Shown here: positions 16,812 to 58,850 of the stretch, in pieces
How positions within the stretch are numbered: position 1 is the stretch's first letter
How the letters are laid out: every line of letters begins with the position of its first letter
Notes under the pieces: model-generated
Seen by the model: only the letters and a program-made list of their open reading frames with translations
What the model was told of the DNA's origin: nothing
The model's database searches: none
Assembly: GCA_946699065.1 (NCBI GenBank)
Contig: CAMPDV010000360.1
Location: 1 to 64,000 of the forward strand
Direction: 5' to 3'
Length of the DNA stretch: 64,000 nucleotides
DNA from: Loxodes magnus
Taxonomy: Eukaryota; Ciliophora; Karyorelictea; Loxodida; Loxodidae
Program-made: the position numbers and the translations under genes

Positions 16812-17898
16812 TCAACTCGAAATCCTCCACTTTCTCACAGTATTGTCTCTAGCTCCCGATACCAACCATCTATTATCAACACTCAATGCTATAGAATTTA
16901 TTGCATATTTATGTCCTTATAAAGTCTAGATACACTCTCCTTTATCAAAGTTTCAAATCTTGATTGTTCTGTCATCAGAACCAGAAAATATAACACTTGA
17001 ATCAACACTTAACTGAATACTACATACAATATCTGCGTGACCTTGAAGAGTACGAATACACTAACTAGAAGAGAAGTCCCATATCTTAATAGTACTGTCA
17101 CCATAACCTGATATTATATACCTATTATCCTTAGACACTATCACCGATGAAACTAATTCTGAATGCCCAGTAAGACTTCGCACAAGCTGGCATGTCTAGA
17201 AATCCCAGATCTTTATAGTTGTATCACCAGATCCCGATATAATATATCTAGAGTCATAGGAGAGTACTACTGATCAAACTGTATTAGTATGTCCCGACAA
17301 AGTTCTTTGGAGATCACCATTGAGGAAATTTCAGATCTTTATGGTGTTATCGTAAGATCCTGATATAATATAGCTAGAGTCAGGGGAGATTACTACTGAG
17401 TAAATGAAAGAAGTATGCCCCGTTATAGTTCTTTGAAGAGAACCAGTCTATAAGTTTCAGATCTTGATGGTTGAATCACCAGATCCTGATACTATATAGC
17501 TAGAGTCTGAGGAGATTACTACCGAAGTAATAGGAGAAGTATGTCCCGTTATAGTTCTTTGGAGAGTACCTGTCTGGAAATTCCAGATTTTTATCGAATT
17601 TTCAGGAAATCCAGAACCTGATACAATCCAATTCAGGTCACTTGATATGGCTACCGATAAAGCAGGTGAAGAGTGACCAGTGAGGACTTAGTCTAAAAAA
17701 TATGAAAGAAATACCTTTACTTTAGTCATAACTGATCTTGTTTATTAACTTTTAGTAGCATAAGTTAGGCAGAATTTCATACTTAAAATGAAGTAGAGAT
17801 ATTTTCCCTAGAATGTGGCTTCTCGCTCTTAAGAGTTTTCTTAAAAAAATAATTTTAGTAAATTGCTTTTCTTTTTCCTCCGTTTCTTTTTTCTCCAT
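16812..17898 (-). CDS. WD40-repeat protein, unit A (intact, one intron)
   Basis: With one 22-nt intron removed, the gene from ATG 17898 (context AAAATGG) to TGA 16812-16814 encodes 354 residues. About 75 N-terminal residues (MEKKETEEKEKQFTKIIF...) are charged and helical. Seven WD40 blades follow, each with a GH near the start and ending SGS-D--IKIW; a typical one is GHTNTVWSVVLS. Seven blades make a complete propeller, a scaffold for protein contacts. Trp is TGG in some blades and TGA in others (17457-17459, 17331-17333, 16953-16955; also the VWS Trp at 17274-17276), and Gln is often TAA or TAG (for example in TLQGH). The final TGA after RKWRISS ends the last blade at the family's natural end. 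Neighbours give no functional clue. Confidence 0.92.
17693..17714 (-). other. 22-nt intron in WD40 gene, unit A
   Basis: The segment starts GTATTTC and ends TTTTTTAG. Its removal joins SKD to QVLTGH and gives the only frame that runs from the ATG into the first blade. An alternative donor 6 bases upstream (28-nt intron) keeps the same frame. The same segment at the same place is in units B and C. Confidence 0.85.
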
Positions 17899-19650
17899 TT
17901 TAATTTTTATAACTTACTTCAATAAATATCTAAATAAAATAACTCAATAAATTTTACTGATTTAAATTTCAATATAATTAAACAATTAAATTATTTATTA
18001 AGCATATTTATAAGTATCTTATTTATAAAACATTGATTTTTCTATTTTTGTCTTAAAACAAGACAAGATAATAAACTAATAGTGTACAAACTTTTACAAT
18101 TTTAATTATTTTATATCTTTTTACTTTTAAATAAAAGGATAAGTTATTATTTAAAAAGTTTATAACGAAGAATTATATCCTTATTATAATAACTTTAATA
18201 TGCATTTATTAATTATTACTTATTTGTGCTTAAAATAAAAGACTCTTAATAAGAAAACCTTATTTCTTTATAGACTCTTTTAAATAATAAATAAAATATT
18301 ACAATTCTTTTAAATCTACTGTTATTAATTATTATTTTTGCACTTACTTTTAATCAAAAAAATGATTTCTTTAAACTTTTTACTAATTAAAAAAATGAAA
18401 TAAAATAAGTTTCTTATTAATTAGTTTGAATAAATATAAAAAACATCAAATTATTTAAAAAAAAGTATTTTTAGAATTTATAAGATAAACTCTTTTAATT
18501 GTCCACTTTCTTACTGCTATTTCATTAAAACTTTTTATTTATAAAGGTCTCTCTTAAAATAATAAACTAGAATCATTTATTACTTATTATGTTGATTCTA
18601 AGCAAGTTATATAAATGTAATAAATATAAGTAGTAGTATATTTAAAGGTTTAATGTATCTTGTTAGTTTATTAAGATACATAAATAAGAAGTATTATACA
18701 GAATTAGGCTATCTTTAATTAAAGATACTGAGTCTAGTAATCTTAATAATATATTAATTTAACTAGTAATGCTCCAATAAATAATCAATTAAATACTTTA
18801 ATGGATTTATTAACTCTGAGGCTAGTACTTTGAAGTTGTTTTTTGGTCAGTTTGAACTTGCTTTCTTCTCTAATCATTTCAATTTACTGCTCATTGATAT
18901 GTAGTTCCTCGCTCTTACACTTAGTTTGTCTTTCTTTAGCATAAATTTTAAGAAGATAAACTGAAAGAAACTAAGCCAGCAACTAAATTATCTTAATTGA
19001 TTCATATAAGCAAACAGCTACTTTGAAGTTAAATCTACTTCTTAGCTTCAATAATGTAAATCTTCTAAAAAAGAATCATATGAAGTTGTCTATTTTCTTT
19101 TACGAAAATCTTTAAAATAAATCTATCAAATGTTTTTTGTTTTAAGCTCCAGATTCCACTTATTAGGTAAGTAAATGATATATATGTTCCTTAATCCTTA
19201 AATCTTATAGCTTAAATTGATTATTTTTTTGCTTTTTTCTTCCCTTTTAAAGAAAGTTGCTTATTATCTTTTTACTGCTAGATTAAACTCCTCATTGTAG
19301 CTTAGCTCTGAGACTAAACTTGCAATTTAAAAAATTGAAAGCAGGGAGTTTAAAAAATTTTTACTAGTCAGCTTTACTTGGCAGTTATATTCAGCATGTT
19401 AAAAGTAATAGGAGACTCATTGAGAATCTTTAATTTTAAATATCTATCGTTGATGGGATATTCCTATACTTTTTTCTTTTTTTAATTCCTTTAGTTCAAA
19501 CTATTCTTTCATAGTAATAATTTTTCTAAACCTCTGCTGGTTTTATCAGATAATCTTTAAACTATATTTAGTTTCTTTCAAATCTACCCGTTTATATCCA
19601 ACGAGGTCTGGATTAAAAGCTAACCGTCTATTTCGTTTCTATCTTTGAAG
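17899..19650. other. Upstream of WD40 gene A and start of A-specific segment
   Basis: Bases 17899-18630 are shared with B and C and may contain the WD40 promoter; nothing specific is visible. From 18630 the sequence is unique to this place. The stretch 18800-19650 is somewhat richer in G+C and can be read as polar coiled-coil-like protein on the minus strand (for example RQTKCKSEELHINEQQIEM near 18900) or as part of a plus-strand frame. I cannot decide between them. Confidence 0.4.
18710..18727. repeat. 18-bp perfect palindrome
   Basis: TATCTTTAATTAAAGATA is fully self-complementary without a loop. Close by (about 18655-18682) TGTATCTT and AAGATACA form another inverted pair. It lies just right of the A-unit breakpoint. 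Possibly a binding or recombination site, possibly chance. Confidence 0.5.
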
Positions 19651-20175
19651 ATGTGACTTTATTTTAAAGATTAAGTTTCATACTGGGAATGTTTTGTTTT
19701 TGGTATTTCGTCTTTTTCTGTTTCTTTGATTTTATTCGGGTATCAGGCTTAATATTATATATATCAAAATATAGCGAAAAAACTTCCAAAGCTTGATTAG
19801 TCTTCTATATATTTTTCTGTTTATCAAACATTTCTAACTACAAAAATATCGCAATTCTAGCAATGAAGTTAAGTAGAAATCAGACAGCAATTTAATGTTC
19901 TCCGCAGCCTTCATCAAAGAGTTCAAAATTTTTAGCAATCCTTAGAGAAATTAACATCACTAATAAGAATCTCTCGTTTGGAAGTATTTGAGGCTTTTAA
20001 ATATTTCTTAGATGAATTCATAGACAAAACCAGTCAAGCAATTAATGACAAATATAAGATTGTCCAAATACCTCGCTTTATCTTAATTTTAAGCTCATTC
20101 TTAGTGTCTATTATTTGGTTCATTCAACATTCTCTACTTTTTACTAAAATTTGGACTATAGAAATTGATATCTGA
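19651..20175 (+). CDS. Possible protein with helical core and C-terminal membrane segment
   Basis: The plus-strand frame ending at TGA 20173-20175 contains an amphipathic polar region (VQNFQQSLEKLTSL, then RLEVFEAFKYFLDEFIDK) followed by a hydrophobic segment (ILILSSFLVSIIWFIQ). Acidic and basic residues at regular spacing are not what random T-rich DNA yields, so coding is plausible. ATG 19651 is a candidate start but the frame is open further upstream. The minus strand also reads as a plausible Lys/Glu-rich protein around 19400-19900, and no paralog exists to decide. Unique to the A-B junction. Confidence 0.33.
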
Positions 20176-21464
20176 CTCTGTCTTTTAGATCACTGTTTCT
20201 TATTAGAATAGAATTAAATTTTCATCTTGCTGACTTTTCTTTAATGTTCCTTTATTCACCATATAAAGATCTAAAGGAATTGCCAATAAACAACTTCAAG
20301 TAAGTTTTTAAGCTTCACATATTACTAGACTAGACTAAGGTTTTTATTAGATCTCACTATCTTGAATCTATTAAACTGATTGGTATTCAAACGTAGTAAG
20401 CTAATTACACCTCACTCACTATAACTACAAATAATGGTAAACCTTAATATATTTAAAAGAAGTAAAAGCTTGTTATTTTAATAGCAACTTATTTTAACCT
20501 AAATAGACAAATAATTAGATATTAAAGTAGCAAGGATATAAGATTAACAACCTAGCTTAATTAACTAATCACTATATCCTAATTTTAATAGCCTAGCATT
20601 ATTATATTACAGTTACTAAGACTATTAGCAACCCTTTATTTTAACAAAGCAGCTTATTAGTATTATATATTTAGTGCTTTAATGTAAAGACTATAAGAGA
20701 TATACTTATAACATTTAAATAATTATTAACCATGTATCTTAGTAATAGCACATCTATATACTATTGTAGAACTTTTAATTTTATAGTGGAAATAGTTAAT
20801 ATGCTTAATTTATTATATTTTTGGTTATTAAACAATATAATGCTAAAAAGGCTAAAGACTTTTTTAAAAAAACTAATACAAAATTTTATCCTTCAAACAA
20901 ATTCCTGGAATACAAATTCTATCAATATTGGAATTTTCGCAAAAGATTTACCCAATAGGTGGAAAATTCTAAAGAGCCTTAAATGATTATTTCTTTTATC
21001 CATAGGCTATTAGCAAACAGACTTGAATAATATTGTACGACTTTATAATTATAATATGTTAGATTAAAAGTGAAGATTAGTAAGATTCTTAAGAAATAAT
21101 ATAACTAGGAATAAAGCTAAAATATCAATTCCATTTTGAGGGTTTCTAATACTTATTTACTAATAAGTATCGAATAGCATTTATTTGATAATTATAAACT
21201 TGATAGTGTTTGTTTAATATAATATAGAGAAGGTATTAAAACATTTTGTTAAAAGTAATAATTAGCTAAACTTAAATAAGTCAAAATAATAATAGAAAAC
21301 AAAGATTTATTATTTGCTATTAAGCTTCTTATATTAGTTATAAACTTAATTAATTAATATAAGCCATATATTAGACCAGGTAATAGCAAAATAATTACTA
21401 TCACTAAAAGAATGTAGTTTTACCATGCTTTTTCCTTACTAAAAATTAATAAATAATAGAATTC
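20176..21464. other. Junction between units A and B
   Basis: From 20176 to 20865 the sequence is unique and AT-rich. From about 20866 unit B begins. A plus-strand frame across the junction (20732-20986) ends with NIGIFAKDLPNRWKILKSLK, and its last part recurs at the start of the window. It is too short and unsupported to call as a gene. Confidence 0.4.
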
Positions 21465-22296
21465 CATTAAGCTCCTTTTCTCTTACTCTTCTGATGTTTC
21501 CTTCTTAAAATAAGGATAATTTTACTGCTATTTGGCAATTGTTTTTTCCCTGAATCGTAACATCTAAGTTGTTTATCACCTCGACAAATATGTAAACCTT
21601 TCAGAAATTTATTTTGTTCTTCTTTATTTTAGCTCTCATTTACTAATGAAAAGGTTTTTTTATAAATCTGCACCTTAAAATAGTAAATTTTACCTATCTC
21701 TGCCTATTCCTTCATATCTTGTATATGCACAATTGTTTAAGCTCTGTGTTATTCCGTAATTTTTTATACTCTTCTAAATAGTCAGAGTTAGTTTCAATTA
21801 CCTTCTAGAAGTTATGTAAAAAATGCCCGCTTACTTTCTCTGCTTTTACTCAAAAGGATGTTCATTTCTTCTATATCTTTCTATCTATATTTATAATATC
21901 GCTATTCATTCTATTAGCTGATTCTAAGTTATTTGGCTTCACTCTATTTATTGTCAATCTTTTCTGAATTAATGTGGATTATAATATTTTGCTTTAAAAG
22001 CTTTTTTACTGCAAAACTTAATGGTTTTCTTTGGTTTACTCTTACAGTTTTATTCTCTATGGAGCACAAATTTTTTCATCGATTGCTACTTCTTTTTGAG
22101 TTTAATCTTGCTAACATGTTTATCCTGTCTCTTCATTATACCAAGAAACCTTTGGTTTTTCTTCTCGTTTTGGTATAAAATTCAGACCCGCTTACAGTTC
22201 CACGAAAGACTCTTATATCTGTTAGTAAATTTACATTTGAAGCTTTTTATTCTCTCATCCAATTTTTAGAAAAGCCTCAACATCTGCTATAAGCAT
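21465..22296 (-). CDS. Unidentified Gln-rich protein, copy B (3' end uncertain)
   Basis: This is the B-unit copy of the gene starting at 1442, here starting at ATG 22296. The frame stays open through the region where copy A is shifted and continues with a sensible segment (KTFSLVNESQNKEEQNKFLK, then a Cys-containing stretch LHICRGDKQLRCYDSGKK). That makes B the better template for the family. The end lies near 21470 but no unambiguous stop is visible. Function is unknown. No signal peptide or membrane segment is evident. Paired single-base indels between A and B show at least one copy is damaged. Confidence 0.42.
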
Positions 22297-24835
22297 AGTT
22301 CAAAGATAAAATCAAAAATTTAATTTCTATTTTTATTTATTTTTCTTACAGATGAAATCATAAGTAAATTAAGCCAATATGCTACAATCTTCAATGTCTT
22401 TATTTTTTATTATATAAAAGTAAGAAAAAAACCTAATTTTATTTAAAAAATAGATTTAAGTAGCTCAAAAAGTAGATCTTTCTTGAAGGAATATCTTTAA
22501 ATAAATACATTAAACTGCAATAATAATAAAAGCTACAAATTTAGCTTTATAGACTAAAATGAGAAGCCTGTTTTTTAATTGCTAGAGTGGTAGACTAGAA
22601 TATTAATTTATATATAGATTCATTTATAAGATTAAATATTTAAAAATACAAGAAAGATATGAATGTCTAAAAGTACGTTATGCATAATCTAACTTACTTT
22701 ATGATTTCATTTATCTTTGCTGATATTTTGGAAGCATATACAATCATCTTTCGCATCAAAAGTTATTTAATCAAACTCCATTCAAATTTATTTTACTTAA
22801 TGTATTGCTGACAATAGATCTAAGGTTTTCTATCAATGCGTTTATTAACGAATGAATCTCTGTTAATTTCTAGTTTTTCAGCAATCCTATGAACTAATAA
22901 AATTCTTAATTTATTACCTTATTTCTTATCGTAAGTAAATTATTATATTTATTAAATTGGAACATAACAATCCAATTATTAAATCTGAACAATCTTTAAC
23001 TGTTTTAAATAAATATAATAAATTTCATTTATTGGTAGTATTCATCCTAAGGCACCAACATATATTATATTGTAATTTCCAATTGGTACCTATTTATTAG
23101 CAATTTCTTTTAATCTTATTTATAACTTTTCAAATATATGATGCTAACATATTTATTTAGTCTACTATTAATAATCTACCTCATTTTAATTATTTTCACT
23201 CTTTCTTTATTTTTATTTTGAAACAGTTAATCAATTACTAAAAGCTGGTAAATTATGTAATGAATAAGGTGTTAGTATGTTTAGGAATTATGCCAATTTC
23301 TTATAATTTCCAGGATTTTACTTAATTAGTAGTATCATATTGTTAAATATTTTTAATAGTTTAAATTTTACTATTCCAGTTGATCCTAATGGAAGAAGTA
23401 TGTATTAGATATTTTGTTTTCAAAATTAAATAAATTAAATAGCTAACTTTTAATTTATTTATAGTTGAATATCTATAATTTCTAATATTTTAAGTTTAAT
23501 TTAATTTTTTTATTTTTCATTTTCTAGTCTTTTTTCTGAATTTATAAGTTAATTTTGTTGGATAATGTTTATTGTTTATTAATTCTGTATCAAATATTTA
23601 AAACGCATCTTCATTGTAACTTTTCTTAGAATTATTTCTTTTAAATATACAGTCAGTATCTTCTTAATGTCATAGGTTTATATAAAAATGAGTTAATTTT
23701 AGCAATTTTAGGTAAAAGATTTTTGTTTATACTTTTTGAATCTAAAAAAGTAACTTATTAGATTATTATTTTTTTAATTTTAGTTCTTATAGTAATTATT
23801 TTTTTTCCTATATTAAATAATAGAATCAATTCATAATAAGTTATATTTTTTTAATTCTTTGCTACTACTCTCAAATAAACGATTCGGAGTAAAATTTGTT
23901 TTGAGTCATATGTAAAAAATCTCATAATTCATCTTCGAAAAGTAATGCTTATTATTTATATCTTTCAAATTAATAAATATTATTAGATATTAGATTAGAT
24001 TAATTTTTATTAAATTTAAGTTTTCGTTATTTATCTCGACTTAGTTTTTCATTTAATGAGAACATTTGCAAATTATTCTACTTTCCAAACTTCTAAGTAT
24101 TTCTAAAATTTTATATTTCTCAAAAAAGGATTAATTCAAATATATTTTAATTTACTATTCTACGTTATAAGAGTTTTAATAAATATCTATTTCCAAAATC
24201 CCTTACAATCCATTATTTTTATTTTACTTTTTGTCATGTTTTTGATTTTATACTTTAGTACATTATTAATATCTAATACAAGCTAAGCATCCTAATTGGT
24301 TATTCATAATTGAAGTTAAGGTTTCATGAACGGCAATATAAATTTATCATTCCGTCAGGATTTTATAATTGCCTTTTAATAAAAAAGCCAATTTCTTATA
24401 TCTTAACATATAATCTTAATTTGCGGTTTAGTTCTTTTGCTATTTTTATCGACTTTCCTTTTTAATTTGTTGGTTTATTTAGTTTTTATTTAATGTTAGG
24501 TGCATTAGTGTAAAATGATAGTAACTATAATTGTAATTAGTTTGATTAATTTAATTTTATAACATCAATAATGATGTTTTGGTTTAGCTAAAATTAAAGT
24601 ATTATTCTCTAATGTTGCTGTTTATACTTATATATAATTAATATGATTAATGATATAAAATGTATTATGTAATATATGCTTCATACTTATAATTCAAATC
24701 TAAATTAATCTTTATTATAATTTAGTGAAGAGAAAGTTCCCTATAATTCTCTATTAAAGTAACTAGTTTTGCTATTTTACTAACTGCTACTTAATTTATT
24801 ACATATCCCTTTTACATAATCTAGATATTTTCATC

Positions 24836-24872
24836 TATTTTTAGTTATTTTTAAACTAAATAACTAAAAATA
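24836..24872. repeat. Perfect 15-bp inverted repeat, unit B
   Basis: This is the same arms and loop as at 3973-4009, unchanged in the second unit. Confidence 0.6.
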
Positions 24873-27515
24873 AAATAAATCTACTAAAGCTAAAATTAAT
24901 AGAATAGCTTCTATAATTTATTACTTTTAAACTATTATTAAATTACAATACTTTAAAACCTTAAACTTTGCTAGATAAGAAAGGAAAATAACCTATTAAG
25001 GATATAATAGATTAGATATAAGCATTCATTTTTTATTTATTGCTAAATAAATTTAATTCGGAAAGATAATTGAAATCTCATTAGTACAAGAAATATTCCA
25101 TTATAAGTCTTGCCTTACGTTACTATATTAACTTTGAGTAAGTTTCATTAAAGCATAAAGTAAACATAGCTACAGACCTCAAGACAATCATATTAAGAAT
25201 CTCTCTTAGAGCATAAATTTATTTCCTCCTAGGTATGAATTTAATATTTTTAAGGATTTTAGGAGATTATTTAGTATACTAAGATTGAGAGAAGCACATA
25301 ATGATACTCCTACAGACTTTTTATTTTATACTTAAGCATTTTTTTAAATTTTCTTTGTAATTGAATATTCTTTTTAATAATCTAAGTTATAATGAAACTT
25401 AGAGCTATTGAAATCCCTAATACTTTTAACTAAATAATTTTAGAATGCTGTTACAAATGTTAAATGATATAGGAATTAAAAATAGAAATAGTATCCAGTT
25501 TATAAAAGGATATAATAATTAAAATTAATTTTAGAGATTATAATAAGTAATTGTATGATATAATAATAATACTTCCAGTTATTATTAGTAAACCATATAA
25601 TTATACTCAATCTATCATACTTTTCATTTATTTTCTATTACCATTCATCTTACATAAGTTTAACCAATATAATAGTAAGCCAGGCTTAAATTAAGGCATC
25701 AAGAATAACTTTTTTGGGACTAGATAATTAGTTCTAATAGAAAATTATCAAAACAATATATACTAAAGTCTATAAAATTAATTTAACACTTTATAAAGTA
25801 AGCTATTAACATTAGAGTTTAAAATATCTTAGGTAAAATAATAATATTAACAGAGAAATAATAGTATTCTCATATATTCACTTAATTATCCTAATAATAA
25901 ACCATGTAATATAATATTTTACTTAAAAAGCCATATAGTTAAAATAGATACCTTAAGTGGATTAAGATTTATCAAATAATAAATAATTATAATTTAACTT
26001 TAAGATATTCAAGCATAGTTATATCAACAATCAGCCCTTTAATTAAAATAATTTATTCACTTGATAAATCTTTCAGCTACTTAGCGAATTATTTTAGTTA
26101 TAATAATCCTTCTTAAATTTTTAAGGCTTTTTATCCTTATGATCTCTAAATAAGAAACTTCAGTGATAATTCATTTATCTCTTTATTTTTAAATTCTATA
26201 AACAATTTTTTCTTTCTAATTTGATATCAAGTTAAAACTTAATTATTGCCTTTAATTTTTAATTGTTTTTTCCGGATATTTCAAAGATTTTAAATAAAGC
26301 TTAATTGGTTTAAGTTTTTCGTTTTTCAATTATCTAGATAATTCTTTCAAAAGAATTCTAAATTTTACTTGTTTTTGAAGTAATTTATAAGCAATCTCCT
26401 TCTTTATGAGTTTTTATATTCTTATTATTTATATAAAAGTGAGAATCAATATATGATACTTTACTATGATAAGAGAATTATCTAAATGACATAAGATATT
26501 ATTAATTTATGAGCATTTAAAACATTTTTCTAACTTCGATACTATTATTAAGCTTCATATCTAAAACTTAGTAAGACTGTTTACTATGACTTATCAGTAA
26601 TTGTTAATTTTTCAAATTAAGCGTTTATTTTGATGTTAAAATATCTTTATAATTTTATTTCTTTAATCTTAAATAAAAGTATGCTACCACTTTATTAATT
26701 TATTTATCTTATTTAAATTTACCAAATGTTTATTCTTATGCTCATAATACCTATTTTCCCTATAGTAAATAATGATTTTATTAGTAAAAGATTAATATAT
26801 TATCTATTAATATTCTATTATCTAGAATATCTTTGCTATGTTTAAATTACTTACTCTAAATTTATAAATTTATTACTTTTTATAGTTTAAAATAGTATGT
26901 TTACTATAAATTATAATTATTTAAAATTATTATTTAAACAGATACTTTACTAAATGGAGAGAATATATAGTTTCATTAGTTAAATATTTATTAGTATAAA
27001 TATAGATAGTTTTGTTGCTTATAAGAATTAAATAAAAAAGTTAGTTTTTCATTAAGTTTATTCTGCACATTGTTAGAGTTAAAAAATAGATGTGGATTAA
27101 GATTTAAAGCATATAGCTTAAGTAAAAAATCTAAACTAATAAGTTTCATATATTTACTGACATTATTTAAAATTAAACATTATACAGAAACTAAAACTTT
27201 TATGAAGAAGCAAGATTAATAAATAGATTATAATCTTTATAAAAATGTCAAAATAATAGTAAAGCAAATAGCTTGTAAAATTAATTAACTATGATCAACA
27301 ATTGGACTATATAAAATCAAATTAAAAATTGGAATTTAAACAATCTAAAAAAGTAACTAAATTCTTATAAGCAATACAAAGAGATATAAGCACTCTTCAA
27401 AGAATATTAAAAGAGAATTAATTTTAATTTCTATTTAAATATAAATTTATTAAATTAATAAAAAGAACTACGAAAATAAAATAATTCAACCTTAATTGTA
27501 AAATGACAATTCCCG

Positions 27516-27569
27516 AGAGACTTAAGTTTTAATCTTAAAGAGAAAAATATTTTCTTTAAGGAAGTCTCT
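27516..27569. repeat. Imperfect hairpin, unit B
   Basis: This is the counterpart of 6667-6720 with both arms intact. Confidence 0.45.
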
Positions 27570-30500: not shown

Positions 30501-30769
30501 TATGCTTTTTATTTATTATGAAAAATTTGACTGTTGCTAAGCTAAAATTATTTTAGATTGCATTATATCTTTTAAGGTATTAATTTAAATTTCAATGAAT
30601 TTGTTTTTTAAATTCATATTCTCAAACTTACTTCATATTCGACATTTTCTTGATGCTTTTATTCGCCACTATTTTCTCAAAACTACAAATTACTATTTGA
30701 ATGGAAGATATCTATTGTAATTCTCTCTAAATTCACTCCTATTTATATTTAAATTATATACTTACCTTC

Positions 30770-33558: not shown

Positions 33559-33755
33559 TCATCTTTTTAATTATCTAATTTTTAAATAATTCGTACATAA
33601 TTTTAATATAACTATACATATAATAAAAAGTTTTAAAATTACATAGTAAACTCTTAATTTTACTATTATTTAATAATGATAATGAAATTAAAATGTTTAA
33701 AAGTGCCAATCTGGGCACTGTTTAAAATAAGTTGTTTTATCAGCAATATTACTCA

Positions 33756-37558: not shown

Positions 37559-38642
37559 TCAACTCGAAACTCTCCACTTTCTTATCGTCTTGTCCCATGA
37601 TACCGATACCAACCATCTATTATCAACACTCAATGCTATAGAAGATATTGATCCTGCATGCCCTTATAAAGTCTATATACACTCACCTTTATCAAAATTC
37701 CAGATCTTGATTGTTTTATCATTTGAACCAGAAAAGATAACACTTGAATCAACACTTAACTGAATACTACGTACAACACCTGTATGACCTTAAAGAGTAC
37801 GAATAAACTAACCAGAAGAGAAGTCCCATATCTTAATAGTCCTGTCAACAGAACCCGATATTATATACCTATTATCCTTAGACACTTTTATCGATGAAAC
37901 TTCGCTTGAATGCCCAGTAAGAGTTCGTACAAGCTGACCAGTCTAGAAATCCCAAATCTTTATAGTTTTATCCCAAGATCCCGATATAATATATCTAGAG
38001 TCATAGGAGATTACTACCGATATAACATATGAAGTATGTCCCGACAAAGTTCTTTGGAGATCACCATTGAGGAAATTTCAGATCTTTATGGTTGCATCGT
38101 AAGATCCTGATACTATATAGCTAGAGTCTGGGGAAATTACTACCGATCTAACTGAGGAAGTATGCCCCGTTAAAGTTCTTATGAGAGAACCAGTCTATGA
38201 ATTTCAGATCTTGATCGTGTTATCAGCAGATCCCGATACGATATAGCTAGAGTCCTAGGAGATTACTACCGAGTTAACTGAGGAAGTATGTCCTGTTATA
38301 GTTCTTATGAGAGCACCTGTCTGGAAATTCCAGATCTTTATAGAATTTTCAGGAGTTCCTAAACCTGATACAATTCAATTCAGGTCACTTGATATGGCTG
38401 CCGATAAAACATCTGAAGTGCTATTAATGACTTAGTCTAAAAAATATTAAAGAAATACCTTTACTTTGGTCATAACTGATCTTATTTATTAACTTTTAGT
38501 AGCATAAGTTAGGCAGAATTTCATACTTAAAATGAAGTAGAGATATTTTCCCTAGTATGTGGCTTCTCGCTCTTAAGAGTTTTCTTAAAAAAATACTTTT
38601 AGTAAATTGCTTTTCTTTTTTCTCCGTTTGTTTTTTCTCCAT
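37559..38642 (-). CDS. WD40-repeat protein, unit B (intact, one intron)
   Basis: It starts at ATG 38642, ends at TGA 37559-37561, and encodes 353 residues after removal of the 22-nt intron. It has the same N-terminal region and seven blades as copy A. The first blade is atypical: one codon is missing and the GH dipeptide is replaced ([10 protein letters not shown] instead of VLTGHSSPALS). In the sixth blade the closing Trp is TGG (37700-37702), where A and C have TGA, direct evidence that TGA means Trp. Many differences from A and C are amino-acid replacements in the blade loops, suggesting diversified binding surfaces or relaxed constraint; the frame is nonetheless fully open. Confidence 0.92.
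38437..38458 (-). other. 22-nt intron in WD40 gene, unit B
   Basis: Same position and ends (GTATTTC...TTTTTTAG) as in unit A, with one internal substitution. Confidence 0.85.
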
Positions 38643-44469: not shown

Positions 44470-44869
44470 TATTTTAATTTCATATAAATAGATGTATCTT
44501 ATAATTATCTAAGCTAGAAAAAGCTTAAAATTTTATAAAGTTAATAATTTAAAATAATTTAATTATTAGATTTAACCTTTTTAAATAAAATTTAGTTTTC
44601 AAATAAGCTTACTAAATATTATTGCTTTTAAGAAAGCATCTTAAACATTTTTTATTTTAAGTTTTGAAAATTAAATTTTATTTTATTTTAAATTAAATTA
44701 AATTATTAAATATGTTAATGTAAATAATCTTAAATAGGTTTAGCTTTTAATATTGCTTCAATAAGAGCTTGCAATATTATTAGAATATAAATATTTAAAA
44801 GATAGTTTAATTAAAATTGTTTTTAAAGTTTCTATCTATATAGAGGACAAAAAACTCAAACTCTATAGA
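44470..44869. other. Short AT-rich spacer
   Basis: AT-rich, no gene or clear regulatory element. It could contain the promoter of the coiled-coil gene reading left. Confidence 0.4.
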
Positions 44870-46790: not shown

Positions 46791-47495
46791 TTGGAGTCAG
46801 GCAATCTTAATAAGATATAAAAAGTACAGGGACTGTAAATTTAATAACAATAAAAAGTGTTAATTAATATATAATAGATTTTTAGAATATTTATACTACT
46901 GAAGACGCGGTATGGGTCAGAATTAATTACTTGAACTATTCTTCAGAGATAAAAAATAAAATGATATAATCACTGACTAAAGATAAGTAGCAAGATGTGC
47001 TTTACAAAGTCTTATCTACTTTTAATGAATCTTACTTTATTGTCTTTAATTGGTTATTCTTTTAAAATTACATTGCAATGTATTATTTCAAATTCTATAT
47101 AAAACTTCACACTGAATCTTAAATGTATCCCAACTCTGATGTAACATTTATTTTAACAAAGAACAGTAACCTTAAATATTTAAAGAATTCTAAATAGATG
47201 AATTAACATTTTCAAATAGAACTTTAAGATGCTAGTAGTAGCAAATAATTTTAAATAAAGTTTTAAATAAAATAGAATAAACATTTTATTCAGATGTAAT
47301 AGGAAGGTTGAGTGCAATGCCTACTTTACACCTTTATTTAAAGATTAAGATAATAACATTGACTAATAGAAATTTCCAACTTATACTTACACAATATTAA
47401 ACAAGACAATGATTCGAGAAATAGTATCAATTTTCAAATTAATAACCTTTAGTTACAATTTTTAGTATTATTTGAGATATAGGTACTATTAAATA
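46791..47495 (+). mobile_element. Probable decayed upstream part of retrotransposon (+)
   Basis: The stretch leads into the zinc-knuckle frame. Short plus-strand segments look like the connection domain between reverse transcriptase and knuckle, but the frame is interrupted and no catalytic motif is present. The left limit is arbitrary. Confidence 0.3.
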
Positions 47496-47873
47496 AAACA
47501 CTCTGAAATTTGCATTTGCGGAGAATAAGAAACCTATTAACATATTTCTTAATGTGAAGCTCTGCAAGATTTAATGGAAGAATTTAAAGACTTGAAAAAT
47601 TATGATTTGCTTAAACTTATAACTTACAAAAAATTTAAATTAATTCTAACTTCCATACTCTAGGATAACTTTAACAAATTGACTTAAGAATTAAATACTT
47701 TCATTCAAAATTGCTTCATAGAAGAATTTAAATTTTAGAGTAAAAAAACGAACAAGTGGAAGAGTTAATGGAATAATTTGGCTTGTGAGCAAGTGCAGAA
47801 GAAAATGATTAAAGAAAATTAAATCAAGATTATTGAGATGGAAGTTGTAAAACATTTTTTATTATCTATATGA
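47496..47873 (+). mobile_element. Non-LTR retrotransposon, C-terminal end of ORF2 (+)
   Basis: The frame reads a zinc knuckle ICICGEQETYQHISQC, that is C-x-C-x7-H-x3-C, followed by EALQDLMEEFKDLKNYDLLK and a Lys-rich tail ending at TGA 47871-47873. A Cys/His knuckle after the reverse transcriptase, just before the end of ORF2, is typical of several LINE clades. The element at 52693-53244 has the same knuckle spacing and an NYDL motif at the same distance. Upstream of 47496 the sequence probably continues the element (LTNRNFQLILTQYQTRQ near 47360) but with frame shifts. No reverse transcriptase palm motif is seen upstream, so it is 5'-truncated or decayed. Confidence 0.7.
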
Positions 47874-48229
47874 AATATGGTAAACACATATAAATTTTAA
47901 TTATTATATATATTAATCAATATAAGTAAAAAAAATAACCATTTTTAATTTTTAACTTAATTTTTAAATTTTATATCAAAAAATTTTAATTTAAATTAGA
48001 ATTATAATTGAAAATATTATTAAAATTAAGGCTTTGAAATGAAAGCTAATGTTTTCATAATTAAATAATTTTTTTAATTAAATTAGTAATTAGTTATCAT
48101 TTTCATATTATATCAAGATTAAAAATTGCTTTGCAAGCGTAACAATCTTTTTGCTTAATTAAAATGCTGCAAAAATTTTAATTAATTATAAATAATAAAA
48201 ATTAAAGTTTAGGTTTAAATCTTAAGTTA
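47874..48229. other. AT-rich spacer
   Basis: 3' of the retrotransposon end; AT-rich, with no clear poly-A tail or target-site duplication that I can define, and no gene. Confidence 0.4.
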
Positions 48230-48740
48230 TTGTCACCTTCAATTATCATTGAATCATTTCTTTATTCTTTCAATTCCATTTAAAGATGTAGTTTGTACTG
48301 ATTTTCTTCTATTTTTTCTAATTTGCTGATTAGTTCTTTCTGCTTCTATTGTTAGTTTTGAGATTAACTACTCTAGTCTTGTGATATATTTCAAAATGCG
48401 TTAAGGTCTCTTTCTTAGGTCACGAGTCTCGATTCTATTTCCTCTGCAAGTTCAAGTTTTACATTAACTTCTTATTGTCTTTCTTCAACATTTTTACCTC
48501 TTCCTGGAGGTCTACCACCATTTTAACAAGCTAATCATAGTTTATTTACTATTATGTGGTGAGATTCGATACTTCCGAGCGCATAATATTCTTATCCTAT
48601 TTTTAGGTTTTTTTTAGAGGTGGGAGATTCATCCTGATTGATGATTTTTTATTACTCTTTTCCTGGTCCTAACCTTTCTAAGATGTCGTTAACTCCTACT
48701 TTTTAGGAGCCACGAAGAATCCCGGTTTGAATCCTGACAT
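48230..48740 (-). CDS. Coiled-coil protein, third family member (one frame change)
   Basis: From ATG 48740 it reads MSGFKPGFFVAPKKQELTTS, sharing the Pro-Gly-Phe-Phe N-terminus with the gene at 13735. It then has a coiled coil (MVVDLQEEVKMLKKDNKKL), a one-base shift near 48445, and LAEEIESRLVTQERDLNAFW with Trp as TGA, aligned with NQERELQAY of the first member. Gln-rich helix follows (ELISKLEKIEENQYKLHLQ). No clear stop; the limit given is approximate. Same orientation as its relatives. It is diverged, so not part of the recent duplication. Function unknown. Confidence 0.5.
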
Positions 48741-51700
48741 CTTTTAAAAAAATAAGGTTAAAAGATAATAATTAATAAAGATAAAATGTAAGATAAACTT
48801 TAGAATTTATAATAAATAAAATTAAAAAAAGTAAAATTTCATTCAATTAACAGATAATCCTTATTATTTTTAATTTAGATCCTCTTAAAATAAAATAGAT
48901 AAAAAGATATTTTAATTAATGTTATAATCTAAAAATATTAGAAGTAAAAAAAGAGTTAAATCTTAAATGATTCTTTAGTAATAATATTTCTAGATAATCG
49001 TTAGTAAAGAAAAAGAAAATCATAAATTTTAAGATTTTTTATTAAGTTTATGAAGAAAAAATTAATATTAAAATTCATTCCTAAAATGAATTACAATTTA
49101 AACATATTTAACTACTAATTATTTAAATTTTACATATTTTTAAAAAGCTAAATTTTTATATAAATTAAAGAACTATTTCTAAAATTAAATAAATATTTTT
49201 ATTATATATTAAAGAATTAAAAAATTTATAAATGTGCAAGGCAATTACAAATAAACCTTTCTTAAAAAAGAGTTTAGCGTTTAGAAAATTATAAATAAAT
49301 ATATAATTACTAAAACATTTAAACTAAAAATTACATAAATATTCTTATTTTTAGCAAATTTTAGCTTTAAATTCTAAAATTAAAAGGTTATCTTAATTTA
49401 ATAAATAGAGCGAAAGATATCTAATAGTAAAAGATTGAAATTAAAAGAGATAATATTTATAGGATATTAATGAATCTATTAAGTAAAAAAGAATTTCTAA
49501 AGTTTTATTATTATTAAATAATTAATTCTTATGCTACATAATTATTTGATTTAGTATAAGCTAGCTAAAATGTAATAAAAATATAATATAAAATTAGTTG
49601 TTTAAGTTTAATAAAATAGATTTAAAATACTTTGATTAATATATAGTTAAATATTCTAAAAGGGATTCCTTGATTATGAAAGTTTTAAATTAGGCTTTTT
49701 AATAAATTGAATATGATTTAGTGATAATTTTAGAATATTTAAAGTAAATTAGGATTATTTAATAAATGATAATTGAATTTGATTAAAAAGGATAAAATGA
49801 TTAGTTAGTATTTTGACTTAAAGTAGTTAATGAATAATAGACTAATGATTTAATGATTATATTGATTTTGAATAATAATGTTTATAGTTTTAAAATATTA
49901 GTAGTATAATCCCTTATAATGCTTTTATATTTTTGATGACTAATTTAAATTAATCTTTTTTGATAAAATAATAATTTAATTAATTAATTTTATTATTTTT
50001 AAATTAAATATACTAATTATTTATTTATCAATTCATAGTCATTTAACATTATTTAAATAACATTTAACTATATCAACAGTAACTATCAAAACTACTATTA
50101 CTACTATCAAATATACTATTTACATATTTTTACTAACAAACCTAAATAACTCATTTCAAATTACTTCTTTAATAACTTATATAATATCTATTTATTATTT
50201 AACATACAAATATTACATTCTACTATTATAACAAAAACTATAACCTATTTTACTTCTACTAAATCCAAACCCATACCTAGTTATTAGATTATTAGAAACT
50301 AAAAAAAACTAAATACCATTTACTTTATTCCTATTAATATCAAACCTTTACTAAAATTATTTCTATTTCTTAAATAAGAAAAAGAAGCAATAGTTTAAGG
50401 GTACTTCTAGAATTAAAATTTAGAAATTTAAAATGTTTGCTTCAAAGTTTCCTTCTTAATAAACCGTTACTTTAATTATTTGCTTTACTATAATGTAGCA
50501 TAATATTATTTCCTAAAATAGTATTTTAACATAAGAACAACATGTGTAAGAGAAAGATTTAGATCATAAAATATTACACAAGTGTTGGGAATAATAGTTT
50601 ATTTTTACCTTTCATTTTAATATCAACAATGCTAGCTCCAATTTAGCAAAAATAATTCTACTTAGTAAAAAGATAAAATTACATCATTTAATCTTTATTC
50701 TCAAAATCAGAGTAAAGAAATTAATTTGAAGTAAGATAAATATATTTTTTAATTAAGAGTTGTCAAGATAATCAAAACCTTGCTTACTTATGAATATTTG
50801 CAAATAAATATTATAATTGATGATTTCAAAGAGTTTAATAAGCATAGCAATATTTAAATAAAATTTATTCTAATAATACCTTTAAAGAAATGCAGTCATA
50901 TAAACAGCGAAAAGATTTGTTGATTTAATAAGAGATATATAAAAAGTTTTCTCTTTAATAATATACGCTAAATACAATAGACGTATAATTTAAGAAACTA
51001 TTTCAATCTAAAAAATTAATTACTTATCTTATAACCTTTAATATGAACGGAATCGTCGATATATTAAAACTCAATTCAATAAAGTTTGCTTAAGTAGATA
51101 GGAATTGATACGTTTGAGTACATTTTCAAACGTAATCTTTTTGCAGATATTAAAAAAAATTGTAATAAACTTAAAATAATTAATGGAAAATAGTGTAAAA
51201 GACTTGTTTTATATGACTAAAACTATATTAATAAATAATTTACAAAAGATAAGATAATTAAATTAGATAAGTACATAAAATTATTTCATCAATAATATTT
51301 AGGAGACCATTTAAGATTTTAAGAACTAGAGTGAAGAGAAAATAAGTTATATTAAAAACCCATAAACAGATTTAATGAGCTTAAAAATTCTTTATCAAGA
51401 TGAGAGTGAAAGAGAACTATGAATGAAATATGCAAACTTTTAAATTTAGCTTAATTTGCATGGTTAAATGCCAATAATTATACAATTATGTCTCAATATT
51501 TAAAATATTTAAACTCTTATAGTTTATTATTATTACTTATTATTTAAACTTTAAATAGTAAATAAGATTTTTTATTTATTAATTTTTTCAAATTAAAATA
51601 AATTATTTTAATAATTATCATTTATTTTATTATTTTAAGCTAAAATATGGGCCTTTCTAATATAATTGTTGATATATATATATATAAATAATAAAAATGA

Positions 51701-52692
51701 TAGGAAAATAAAATTTAATCATTTAGCATTTATAATATTAAAGGATAGTTTTAGTTAAAATATGTTTTTAAATAAAAGAAATAAAGTAATTTAATTATAG
51801 TTAAATATTTTATGTAAGTATAATTTTCTTATTATTAGCAAATTAATAATAATGACTTATATTTAAATTTCTTTAAACTGACGATTATAAAATAAATAAT
51901 TTTACATAATTATACTAAGTTTAATTACATTTTGATATATAAATTAATAATTTATACTTAACTTTAAAATATAATAAAAGTTAGTTAAGATTATTATTAT
52001 AATTACTTATATTACTTAGAACTAAAAATCATACATTCATTAAATTTATAATTATTGATAATTCTTTATTAATTTAATTTTATACAGTTATCTCTAAAGA
52101 TACGTTTAACTATATTTATTTTATAATTTACTAAATTATTGTTTTAATTATTGTAGACATTAATTATCAAATGTGAACTTTTATATTTTTATATTTTTAT
52201 AATCTAGTAATCAAATGCTTATTGTTAACCAATTATTTAAAACTCATATCAAAATTATGAAAAGCATCCTCTTTATTAGTTTTAAATTGATACAAAGATA
52301 ATTAATTCTAGCATATAATTATTTAATTATTTTAGATTTTTGATATAGTATTTTTAATATTAATATCTTACTATTATAAAGGATTATTTTTAACTATATT
52401 TTGCTATAATTTAGAATTTATATTATTAAAGTAATAAAGCTAAGGTTCTCTTTAGTTTACTTAGAACTTAAATTCCTTTTAGATATTTCTTCCTTTATAT
52501 TATCTATGTTTTATTAATTATAGTTAAATAAAGAGTTATTTAAATGGCTTAATTAGCAATTTAATTAGTTTTTAGAACTTAAATTTTAATATTTATTTAT
52601 AAAAATAAATGGTATAAATTAAAGCTATTTAGTAATAATATTTCACTTTAATAAAAGAGTTATTGTACGAAACTGTTTATTTAAATTTTAAA
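48741..52692. other. AT-rich region with strand-composition switch
   Basis: No gene recognised in about 4 kb. Around 49640-49950 the plus strand has far more G than C. From about 50030 to 50340 it has C and almost no G. The two halves meet at an A/T-only core near 49970-50000 containing TTAATTAATTAA. A TA dinucleotide run lies at 51671-51685. Confidence 0.5.
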
Positions 52693-53244
52693 TCAAAAGA
52701 GTTTTTTGACATCTATAACTGCATGAATTGCTTCCTTCAATTATAGACATTAGTAAATGATTTTAATGCTTTTTAATTATAATCTTGATCTCATCAATTT
52801 TAAATTACTCTTGTTATAGTCTCTCTTTATATTTTCCTTTTTTGCTTTTTCCATTTCTAATAATTCTAATCTTCTTGATATAAGTTTCTTGTGAAATACT
52901 TTTATTTATTGATCTAAAAATCTCAAATAAGACTTTGGAAAGAAGTTTATAAGTCCTTAATCATATATTATAAAGCGGCTTAAGTCATAATTCTCAATCT
53001 TTTACGATAGTCAATCTCTTATATTAGAATAGTATATGCATCTAAAAATGTGCTTGAATGCAACATACTCTCCACACATACAGTAGGGATTATTAATAGG
53101 ATAATAACAAGCTTAAAGATCTTTTCGAAAACTATAAGATTGGGTTCTAAGCTTATATATACTGATAATTTCTTGTCTAAATTATTTGTTCAACTTAATG
53201 TAAGTGTTTACTGGAAATTTGACTAAGATTACTGAACTGTTCAG
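52693..53244 (-). mobile_element. Non-LTR retrotransposon, C-terminal end of ORF2 (-)
   Basis: One continuous minus-strand frame of 184 codons ends at TGA 52693-52695. It contains the knuckle YCMCGEYVAFKHIFRC (C-x-C-x7-H-x3-C) near 53085, preceded by ISIYKLRTQSYSFRKDL and followed by NIRDWLSQKIENYDLSRF, where the Trp is TGA. The spacing and the NYDL motif match the plus-strand fragment at 47496-47873, so both belong to one family. It is 5'-truncated at about 53250, close to and opposite in direction to the reverse transcriptase fragment at 53640. This frame is intact, so the insertion may be relatively young. Confidence 0.75.
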
Positions 53245-53639
53245 TATATATTTAGCTTTTTTCATTCTCTTAAAATTTTGATTAGCTGTATTATAAAAAT
53301 ATTATTGTATTTTGTCTCTTATATATTTAGTAAAAATTTTTTAATTGAAAGTTTAAAAAAATAAAGCAAAAAAGAAACTTTTACTTCTAAATGGAGATGC
53401 TAAAGAAATATTTTCACATACTAAGAATATTAAAAAGCCTAAAAAATAATTAAATGAACTTTAATTAAGAAATCAAAAATAAATCCATTGAATCATGGAA
53501 AAATTTATTTTTAACAAAAATTTTAATCTAACTAAATAATATAATTCTCAGTAATTAAAAAATAGATAAAATATAAGATAGTATTTAGGAAATTAAAGAT
53601 TATCAACTCTCATATTTATAAGGATTTTATCTTTTTACC

Positions 53640-54260
53640 ATACAAGAAATACAAGAAATTATAAAATAAATTACGAATGGAAAAGCAGCTGCTTCAGCTT
53701 GAATAAAAAGTGAATTTCTGAAATATGGTGGATAATATTTGATAATAATTCTTCACTCTTTTCTAAATAATATGTTAAGATTTAGAATAAATCCTTAGGA
53801 ATTAAATACATTGTCGGTAATTCCAATATTTAAAAAAGGAAATAAAGATGACTGGAAAAACTGAATACCTATTTCTCTTATTAATATTATTATAAAACTA
53901 TATGATAAAGCTTTAACGAGAAGATTATACAATCTGCTTTATTAGAGAAATTTGATTAGTTCTTCATAAATGGGATTTATGAAAAATAGATAAACAACTT
54001 AATAAATTTGAATAATATAATAAATAATTGATAACTATTGGAAAAGTGCTAAAAGTAAGACTAAATTGATAGCAACACTGATAGATGTTGAAAAAATGTT
54101 TGACTCAATAGAAAGAAGACTTTTATTAGATCAATTTAAGAGAGTTAAACTACCACTTGGACTAATAAAAGCCTTAGAGTTGTTTTACAAAAATCTAAAT
54201 TCTCCATTTAAAATAGACGGAGATAAGTTTGCAGAAAAGATTCTAAATATTTTTGACGAT
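53640..54260 (+). mobile_element. Non-LTR retrotransposon reverse transcriptase fragment (+)
   Basis: The frame shows the classical LINE series: ITNGKAAASAWIKSEFLKYG, SVIPIFKKGNKDDWKNW, IPISLINIIIKLYDKAL, SSSQMGFMKNRQTT, and the first catalytic box LIDVEKMFDSIERRLL with its Asp. Gln is encoded by TAA/TAG (including the invariant Gln of Q-x-GF) and Trp by TGA (53862-53864). The region between this box and the second catalytic box is missing; an IFDDILHLI near 54249 may be a remnant of the second box after an internal deletion. The fragment stops where unit C begins. Endonuclease and 5' parts are not recognisable left of 53640. Non-functional remnant. Confidence 0.85.
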
Positions 54261-54827
54261 ATATTGCATCTTATAACCTATTTATTTTATATTTCCTCAA
54301 ATTCTTGCTCATCTTCAATTAATCTCACATAAAATTAAGTTTTGTTTTATAAATCAATTTGCAGGAAAAAAATTATCTTTTTAAGCTATAATATCATCTT
54401 ATCACTGTTTATCTTATAAAAGAATTGTTTTAATAATTAAGTTTTTATCTTTAAATAATCTAGCAATTTTCAGTTGATATCATACTTTATGAATAAATAT
54501 AATTACAATCTTTAAAATATCAATCAAATAGATAAATGAACAATAATCAATGACTATTTAATTAGAAAATGAATATGAAAACATTTTAATTTAATTTCTT
54601 GATAAGATATTTTAAATTTAAATAATTGTTTAATCTTTTAAAAATTATATTTATTAAACCACTTTAAATGTTTTTATGTTTATGAATATTTAGTATCTTA
54701 ACTTAAAAAATACTATATTATATATTAAAGCAAACATTTATTAAATGAATGCTTAGATTATAAATTATAATTTAGTTGTCTAATAATTTAGAATAGAACA
54801 AAAAATAGCTCATTATTAAGGTTCTTT

Positions 54828-56950: not shown

Positions 56951-57070
56951 TTCCTATTTAGAATTTTTTATCCCAAAATAAAAAAATTTATTCCTATTTA
57001 GATTTTTTTATCCCGAAATCAAAAAATTTATTCCTATTTAGAATTTTTTATCCCAAAATAAAAAAATTTA
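56951..57070. repeat. 40-bp tandem repeat, three copies
   Basis: Three consecutive 40-base units start TTCCTATTTAGA and contain TTTTTATCCC. The first and third are identical and the second differs at a few positions. Units A and B carry one such unit in the equivalent place. Confidence 0.9.
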
Positions 57071-57227
57071 TTCCGTCCCAGATATCTTTGGTAGTGTAAA
57101 ACGCTGAGCAAAAAAACAAATTTTTTGTTTTCATGAAATTTAAACTCTAAAATCGAAAAAATAATGATAAATAAAAAACTTAATTTCAGAAAATTTTATA
57201 ATCCAATCGGAAACGAAACATATTAAA
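57068..57227. repeat. Duplicated 160-bp segment, second copy
   Basis: This copy is followed by the flank found in A and B (CTTAAATATTAAAATT), so it is the ancestral right end. It differs from the first copy by a few substitutions. Confidence 0.85.
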
Positions 57228-57763
57228 CTTAAATATTAAAATTTTATAATATCAATAAATAATAAATAATCAATCATAAAAAATAAATAATAAAAAAACA
57301 AAATTTAATTTAATTTAAAATAAATACTTAATTAAATTTTTTAAATTATAATCAAGATTATTTACTTACTTTAACCTTATAAATAATATTTTAACCACTT
57401 CACAAAAAAAATGAAAATTTATGCTCAACTTGAAATTTTTACTAAATCTAAAAATTAATCCATAAAATTTTATAGCATAAATTTAAACTTAAACTTATTT
57501 CATTCTTTCATTTAACAAAATTATATTTTAAATATTTTTAAACATTACCACTTTAAATCAACATACCTCACTAATTTCTTTAACCTATCACTCAAACTTT
57601 TTTTTAAACCAATAATATTTAACAATATAACAAATTTTTAATTAATAAATTAAAAAACTTCATATAACTAAAAACATTATTAACATTAAACATTCATTTA
57701 AATACATTACCAATATCTTATATCTTTAATCGAAAAATTAAATTAAGTCAAATAGCAAGTTAC

Positions 57764-58850
57764 TCAACTCGAAACTCTCCACTTTCTTATCGTCTTGTCA
57801 AGTCCTCCCGATACCAACCATCTATTATCAACACTCAATGCTATAGACCATATTGATCCTGTATGCCCTTATAAAGTCTATATACACTCACCCTTATCAA
57901 AGTTTCAAATCTTGATTGTTTTATCATCAGAACCAGAAAATATAACACTTGAATCAACACTTAACTGAATACTTGATACATAACTTGAGTGACCTTGAAG
58001 AGTACGAATACACTAACCAGAAGAGAAGTCCCATATCTTAATTGTCCTGTCAACAGAACCCGATATTATATACCTATTATCCTTAGACACTTTTATCGAT
58101 GAAACTTCGCTTGAATGCCCAGTAAGAGTTCGTACAAGCTGACCAGTCTAGAAATCCCAAATCTTTATTGTTGTATCCCAAGATCCTGATATAATATATC
58201 TAGAGTCATAGGAGATTATTACCGAGTTAACATATGAAGTATGACCCGACAAAGTTCTTTGGAGATCACCATTGAGGAAATTTCAGATCTTTATGGTTGC
58301 ATCGTAAGATCCCGATACAATATAGCTAGAGTCATAGGAGATTAATACCGATCTAACTGAGCCAATATGCCCCGTTAAAGTTCTTATGAGAGCACCAGTC
58401 TATAAGTTTCAGATCTTTATGGTTGCATCATTAGATCCTGATATAATATATTTAGAGTCATAGGATATTACTACCGAGTTAACTGAGGAAGTATGTCCTG
58501 CTATAGTTCTTATGAGAGCACCTGTCTGGAAATTCCAGATCTTTATCGATTTTTCAGGATATGCTGAACTTGATACAATTCAATTCAGGTCACTTGATAT
58601 GGCTACCGACTAAACACGTGAAGAGTGACCAGTGAGGACTTAGTCTAAAAAATATTAAAGAAATACCTTTACTTTGGTCATAACTGATCTTGTTTATTAA
58701 CTTTTAGTAGCATAAATTAGGCAGAATTTCATACTTAAAATGAAGTAGAGATATTTTCCCTAGGATGTGGCTTCTCGCTCTTAAGAGTTTTCTTAAAAAA
58801 ATAATTTTAGCAAATTGCTTTTCTTTTTTCTCCGTTTGTTTTCTCTCCAT
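57764..58850 (-). CDS. WD40-repeat protein, unit C (intact, one intron)
   Basis: It starts at ATG 58850, ends at TGA 57764-57766, and encodes 354 residues after the 22-nt intron is removed. The N-terminal charged region and seven blades are as in the other copies. The sixth blade closes with Trp as TGA (57905-57907). The first blade is VLTGHSSRVQSVAIS, with Gln as TAG. It resembles B more than A in several blades. All three paralogs retain exact frame and intron although they differ by many substitutions, indicating they are or were recently functional. Upstream sequence to about 59,570 is conserved with A and B and may hold the promoter, but I see no defined element. Confidence 0.92.
58645..58666 (-). 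other. 22-nt intron in WD40 gene, unit C
   Basis: Identical in position and ends to the introns in units A and B. Confidence 0.85.

What the first reader, a model, noticed from the sequence alone, without database searches (positions are those of the whole stretch)
16812..58850. All three stop codons are sense codons, and TGA is also the terminator
In three paralogous WD40 genes the blade-closing Trp is TGG in some blades and TGA in others. At the same Trp of blade six it is TGA in A (16953), TGG in B (37700) and TGA in C (57905). TAA and TAG fall on Gln positions. TGA then ends each gene exactly after the last blade. The reverse transcriptase (TGA at 53862) and the retrotransposon knuckle frame agree. 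Established knowledge: karyorelict ciliates use TAA/TAG for Gln and TGA for Trp or stop. The window is thus likely karyorelict, with annotation by standard codes producing only antisense shadows.
Basis: partly seen in the sequence, partly recalled or inferred. Interest (0 to 1): 0.85.

Follow-up and report, generated by a model that had tools for sequence, protein, structure and literature searches.

The report
Loxodes genes using known ambiguous code
The window is ordinary nuclear DNA of a ciliate, almost certainly Loxodes magnus, whose already published genetic code reads TAA and TAG as glutamine and TGA as tryptophan inside genes but as stop at their ends.

Summary
Three tandem WD40 genes on the minus strand read cleanly with TAA/TAG = Gln and TGA = Trp. 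All 21 blade-closing Trp positions (7 blades, 3 copies) are TGG (13) or TGA (8); blade six is TGA in A, TGG in B, TGA in C at the stated coordinates. With TGA hidden as X, a solved WD40 protein has Trp opposite gene A's three hidden blade codons. A TGA five codons after the last blade Trp ends all three genes; G+C falls there from 34-36% to 18-19%, and the seven Trp codons in the last 20 codons are all TGG.

The assembly has 705,730,643 bases; the Loxodes magnus MAC assembly is 706 Mbp, and Loxodes uses table 27. Elsewhere in the genome, eRF1 carries TAA/TAG at six Gln shared with human eRF1, a transaminase has TGA at a Trp, and tRNA-Trp(CCA) has a 4-bp anticodon stem, already reported for Loxodes.

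Weaker points: the reverse transcriptase does not single out Trp; the knuckle TGA sits at a usual Gly; a Pelota gene shows no in-frame TGA end; rRNA placement failed.

The parts
16812..17690 (-). WD40 gene A, propeller-coding part (seven blade-closing Trp) with terminal TGA; 5' limit not determined
   Evidence: (PF00400 E 7.3e-77)
37559..38437 (-). WD40 gene B, tandem paralogue, propeller-coding part; 5' limit not determined
   Evidence: (PF00400 E 3.5e-78)
57764..58642 (-). WD40 gene C, tandem paralogue, propeller-coding part; 5' limit not determined
   Evidence: (PF00400 E 3.3e-80)
16953..16955 (-). TGA at blade-six Trp of gene A
   Evidence: Trp in PDB 2ymu opposite it
37700..37702 (-). TGG at blade-six Trp of gene B
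57905..57907 (-). TGA at blade-six Trp of gene C
16812..16814 (-). terminal TGA of gene A, read as stop
   Evidence: five codons after the last blade Trp; G+C 34.3% in 300 bases before, 17.8% in 90 after
37559..37561 (-). terminal TGA of gene B, read as stop
   Evidence: G+C 35.7% before, 17.8% after
57764..57766 (-). terminal TGA of gene C, read as stop
   Evidence: G+C 36.0% before, 18.9% after
53601..54299 (+). stretch with the first half of a LINE-type reverse transcriptase domain (model 5-106 of 205), in-frame TGA at 53862-53864; the match stops shortly before a duplicated unit that begins at 54296
   Evidence: PF00078 E 7.9e-12; LINE-1 ORF2 chains E 8.2e-9 to 1.6e-8 with TGA as X; unit boundary
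13132..13173 (-). CCHC zinc-knuckle motif with in-frame TGA before the His
   Evidence: same codons at 33949-33990

Best explanation
This is nuclear DNA of a karyorelict ciliate, almost certainly the Loxodes magnus macronuclear assembly, which uses NCBI table 27. TAA and TAG are glutamine. TGA is tryptophan when it lies well upstream of the mRNA end and stop when it lies next to the short, AU-rich 3' UTR. [quoted passage not shown] Inferred: that this near-cognate tRNA reads internal UGA as Trp while eRF1 wins only near the poly(A) tail. This is the published model; there is no RNA or protein evidence here.
For: Assembly 705,730,643 b against L. magnus MAC 706 Mbp, table 27. Blade-closing Trp 21 of 21 TGG/TGA. 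Blind X alignment to 2ymu. PF00400 best with TGA=Trp. Kynurenine-transaminase-like gene in L009: with TGA as X, Trp of the TGWKLGW motif of 2zjg lies opposite X109. eRF1 best with TAA/TAG=Gln, 398.5 bits against 393.4 (Glu) and 392.4 (Lys), with six Gln shared with human eRF1 coded by TAA or TAG. Terminal TGA with a G+C drop from 34-36% to 18-19%; the paper gives 33.5% for CDS and 18.6% for 3' UTR. Over the last 290 codons of the three genes TGA is 11 of 25 Trp codons more than 20 codons before the stop and 0 of 7 within 20. tRNA-Trp(CCA) with a non-standard top anticodon-stem pair. Hand count: 36 of 150 scored WD40 domains hold an in-frame TGA.
Against: Propeller-wide Pfam models do not all prefer Trp: PF25173 scores Arg 334.7 against Trp 309.0, and PF25172 and PF25175 score best with Phe (231.6 and 228.2; Trp 204.0 and not listed at E 1e-58); PF25174 and PF24814 favour Trp. 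I discount these because sums over overlapping repeats jump, but they are results against. TGA also falls on non-Trp columns: 17274-17276 in gene A and residue 158 of the transaminase, opposite Ser. RT and knuckle do not discriminate Trp. The Pelota gene in L009 has no in-frame TGA in the 140 codons read from its acidic tail; G+C falls after an in-frame TAA. tRNAs for UAA/UAG were not found with three queries, which shows little. SSU rRNA placement failed. dN/dS of 0.55-0.66 among the three paralogues is only mild constraint.
Confidence: 0.94

Rival explanations
1. The Condylostoma code (table 28), or a mixed form of it: all three codons are sense, and TAA (or TAG) as well as TGA can end genes.
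For: Same sense meanings (PMC4967479 passages). The Pelota gene in L009 has no in-frame TGA near its end, and G+C drops after an in-frame TAA. A minority use of stop-UAA in karyorelicts is recalled from Seah et al. 2022, which is not held.
Against: Six of seven gene ends looked at are TGA: three WD40, two eRF1 copies and a transaminase. A short unspotted intron could restore a TGA end for Pelota: a TGA lies in the next frame just before that TAA. The Loxodes paper names UGA as the only stop.
Confidence: 0.05
2. The three WD40 genes are decaying pseudogenes of a standard-code or TGA-stop genome, and the internal TGAs are ordinary nonsense mutations.
For: TGG to TGA is one change; dN/dS is 0.55-0.66; a frame-shifted WD40 remnant lies nearby at 10201-10950.
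Against: Three TGA columns fall exactly on blade-closing Trp, two of them kept in all three copies, with the propeller frame open throughout. TAA and TAG are also inside eRF1, and TGA is at a Trp of a transaminase. WD40 domains elsewhere in the genome hold TGA, 36 of 150 by hand count.
Confidence: 0.01

Closest known systems
NCBI translation table 27, karyorelict nuclear code (Parduczia sp., Loxodes; PMC4967479, PMC11441545)
   Same: TAA/TAG Gln; TGA Trp inside genes and stop at gene ends; G+C-poor sequence after the stop; no TGA among the Trp codons nearest the gene end
   Different: Nothing firm; one gene (Pelota, L009) may end in TAA
NCBI table 28, Condylostoma magnum code (PMC4967479)
   Same: Same sense meanings of all three codons
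   Different: There UAA and UAG also end genes; here six of seven gene ends looked at are TGA and one is unresolved
[quoted passage not shown]
   Same: tRNA-Trp(CCA) with an unpaired top anticodon-stem pair; eRF1 changed at Ser70
   Different: There UAR is Glu, UAA is the stop and Ser70 is Gly; here UAR is Gln, TGA is the stop and Ser70 is Ala

Membership tests
NCBI table 27 (karyorelict code) | TGA encodes Trp inside genes | tested here: met
   (PF00400); larger propeller models are mixed
NCBI table 27 (karyorelict code) | TAA and TAG encode Gln | tested here: met
   eRF1; one CAA/TAA exchange in WD40
NCBI table 27 (karyorelict code) | TGA is the stop codon | tested here: met
   six of seven gene ends looked at; the seventh, Pelota, is unresolved; no transcripts available
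NCBI table 27 (karyorelict code) | Coding TGA depleted just before the stop | tested here: met
   0 of 7 Trp codons in the last 20 codons are TGA against 11 of 25 upstream, three related genes only
NCBI table 27 (karyorelict code) | Organism is a karyorelict ciliate | tested here: inconclusive
   assembly size match only; SSU rRNA searches gave no answer
NCBI table 28 (Condylostoma code) | TAA and TAG also end genes | tested here: inconclusive
   none of six resolved gene ends; one unresolved end (Pelota) may be TAA

The most novel reading that the evidence does not exclude
The eRF1 of this genome differs from the human protein at Glu55 (Ala), Thr58 (Arg), Ser60 (Gln), Ser70 (Ala) and Tyr125 (Phe) in both copies. 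It may be a weakened release factor that acts on UGA (and perhaps, in rare genes such as Pelota, UAA) only beside the poly(A) tail, paired with a 4-bp-stem tRNA-Trp in large tandem gene arrays that wins everywhere else.
Probability: 0.3. Interest if true: 0.4.

Novelty: already known. Interest (0 to 1): 0.12.

Why it matters
It confirms from raw sequence a code in which one codon means both Trp and stop, and shows that the window must be annotated with table 27. The three WD40 paralogues are a small natural record of TGA/TGG exchange far from the stop and none near it. The code, its context rule and the 4-bp-stem tRNA-Trp of Loxodes are already in print.

Tried and rejected
Standard code: no ORF of 150 aa or more in the window. 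No tRNA or Rfam family at its cut-off in the window. Pfam on long frames (43600-53300, six frames; 52500-54600, six frames) gave nothing above its cut-off and missed the RT that a shorter stretch finds at E 7.9e-12, so those empty results show little. A UCA-anticodon tRNA-Trp was sought by pattern: 126 matches at up to one mismatch, 100 rows shown, none exact; 99 of them are the CCA gene and one (C72) is another tRNA-like sequence. The rows appear to be sorted by mismatches; 26 matches were not seen. tRNAs for UAA/UAG: a pattern (two hits, both tRNA-Glu), a recalled Tetrahymena tRNA-Gln (no match; the tool warns that an empty answer shows nothing), a shorter pattern (no match); inconclusive. 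Computed folding of the lone tRNA-Trp did not give a full cloverleaf; the Rfam alignment did. Two papers were asked for by recalled DOI and are not held. The genome search says that this genome has no relatives and gives no file, so no genome-wide codon census was made.
Full report
What is there. Three WD40 genes lie on the minus strand in tandem units about 20 kb apart. Read with TAA/TAG = Gln and TGA = Trp, each gives a propeller with seven blade-closing Trp (PF00400 E 7.3e-77, 3.5e-78 and 3.3e-80). Under the standard code the window has no ORF of 150 aa or more.

TGA as Trp. In the codon alignment the blade-closing Trp is TGG or TGA in 21 of 21 cases (13 and 8). Blade six is TGA, TGG, TGA in A, B, C; column 104 is TGG, TGA, TGA. 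Inside the propeller TGA occupies five columns before the stop; the fifth, in A alone, is a variable position. A sixth, in B and C, lies upstream of the propeller where the frame is not established. With TGA hidden as X, phmmer against the PDB puts Trp of 2ymu opposite X148, X190 and X316 of gene A; X209 faces Arg or Trp, depending on the repeat. I set TGA to nine residues and X in gene C: PF00400 scored Trp 264.4, Tyr 257.4, Phe 254.4, the other six 239.0-245.8 and X 242.1. Larger propeller models are mixed: PF25173 scored Arg highest (334.7; Trp 309.0), PF25172 and PF25175 Phe, while PF25174 and PF24814 favoured Trp; they sum overlapping repeats and jump with the number of stretches. In the whole genome, 36 of the 150 WD40 domains scored hold an in-frame TGA (my hand count); many are near-identical arrays, so they are not independent. 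A gene of another kind agrees: a kynurenine-transaminase-like gene in L009, aligned with TGA as X, has Trp of the TGWKLGW motif of 2zjg opposite X109; its other internal TGA, residue 158, faces Ser.

TAA and TAG as Gln. The aligned WD40 stretch has 18 columns with TAA or TAG, some of them outside the propeller; one shows a CAA/TAA exchange. eRF1 is the better test. Both genome copies (L010, L011) carry TAA or TAG at six Gln positions shared with human eRF1 (in GTLQGN, GGQSAL, DQR, FNQAIEL, and two in QEGSQF; the PDB alignment was made with L010 only). Of eight residues tried for both codons in L010, Gln scored best in TIGR03676 (398.5; Glu 393.4; Lys 392.4; down to Leu 363.1); changing TAG alone to Glu or Leu gave 397.3 and 387.6. 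eRF1 has no internal TGA, so it does not test Trp.

TGA as stop. The terminal TGA is at the same place in all three WD40 genes, five codons after the last blade Trp. G+C is 34-36% in the 300 bases before and 18-19% in the 90 after; the L. magnus paper gives 33.5% for CDS and 18.6% for 3' UTR. A and B differ by a two-base insertion about 40 bases after the TGA, which I read by eye and which breaks the frame there. More than 20 codons before the stop, 11 of 25 Trp codons are TGA; within 20 codons, 0 of 7. The copies are related, so this is illustrative, but it matches the published depletion of coding UGA. Both eRF1 copies end in TGA after DEDFL, with G+C 32-33% before and 20% after. The transaminase has TGA six codons after its family and structure matches end. 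The Pelota gene in L009 (TIGR00111 E 3.8e-59) is the exception: read on from its acidic tail for 140 codons it has no in-frame TGA, and G+C falls after an in-frame TAA. It may end in TAA, or a short intron may bring a TGA into frame (one lies in the next frame just before that TAA). After finding this I lowered the main reading from 0.95 to 0.94, raised the mixed-stop rival from 0.03 to 0.05, and lowered the pseudogene rival from 0.02 to 0.01 on the transaminase evidence.

Weaker supports. The RT frame with TGA at 53862 is RVT_1 (E 7.9e-12) and LINE-like, but LINE-1 has Phe at that column, and Trp, Arg and Tyr give 45.8, 45.6 and 45.0 bits. The CCHC knuckle has TGA before its His, where Gly is usual (recalled).

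How it works. ARAGORN types 23 of 23 tRNA genes in L042 and L060 as tRNA-Trp with anticodon CCA. The top pair of the anticodon stem is A:C, marked non-standard in the Rfam alignment of one copy, which leaves four pairs; the same letters stand in the copies of the C67 array. For the C148 array I saw only the matched stretch, which has the C side. The pattern search counted 228 matches at up to two mismatches; the 100 listed are all this CCA sequence, on C67 and C148. No exact UCA version was among the 100 rows seen of 126. A 4-bp-stem tRNA-Trp(CCA) is reported to raise UGA readthrough in Blastocrithidia and Condylostoma and was identified in Loxodes (passages of PMC13092985, citing an eLife critique that I could not read). 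eRF1 differs from human at Glu55, Thr58, Ser60, Ser70 and Tyr125 (positions counted by me from the alignment); Glu55, TASNIKS, Ser70 and YxCxxxF are named as stop-reading motifs in PMC12153298 (passages). That the tRNA wins over eRF1 except near the poly(A) tail is the published model (passages of PMC4967479), inferred here.

Who it is. The assembly has 705,730,643 bases; the L. magnus MAC assembly is 706 Mbp and karyorelicts including Loxodes use table 27 (PMC11441545, passages and section 9). rRNA placement failed. The verdict is: real, correctly read, and already known.

Noticed in passing
L009 minus strand (G000:C2), Pelota gene: The Pelota gene (TIGR00111) has no in-frame TGA in the 140 codons read from its acidic tail; G+C falls from about 40% to 20% after an in-frame TAA, so it may end in TAA or hold an unspotted short intron.
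   Followed up: partly
L010 and L011 (G000:C196, about 34.9 kb apart): Two eRF1 copies, both with Ala at Glu55, Arg and Gln in TASNIKS, Ala at Ser70 and Phe at Tyr125 of human eRF1.
   Followed up: partly
G000:C67:482323-491198 and C148:155464-169421 (L042-L071 from C67): tRNA-Trp(CCA) genes in tandem arrays with spacing mostly near 187 and 241 bases; the C67 copies have a 4-bp anticodon stem.
   Followed up: partly
2-18636 and 20858-39367; 36841-42534 and 57023-62739: Tandem segmental duplication: the first two units are 96.4% identical over 18.7 kb; a third copy matches in pieces, the longest 95% identical over 5.7 kb.
   Followed up: partly
10201-10950 (minus strand); copy near 31001-31750: WD40 matches in all three minus-strand frames (best PF00400 E 2.7e-7, others 0.058 and 0.084) plus a pentapeptide-repeat match, which looks like a decayed, frame-shifted WD40 gene; the copy was seen only by duplication and as a G+C peak.
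   Followed up: no
G000:C78:681122-688206, C103:669738-672972, C158:171420-182004: tRNA matches in tandem arrays with spacing of 1753, 527 and 1752 bases; of these arrays only L030 was typed, as tRNA-Lys(UUU) with a tRNA-Ala beside it.
   Followed up: no
G000:C119:708125-737204, C1503, C272, C6957: Long WD40 arrays, many copies spaced by multiples of 126 bases, with open frames up to 2899 aa.
   Followed up: no
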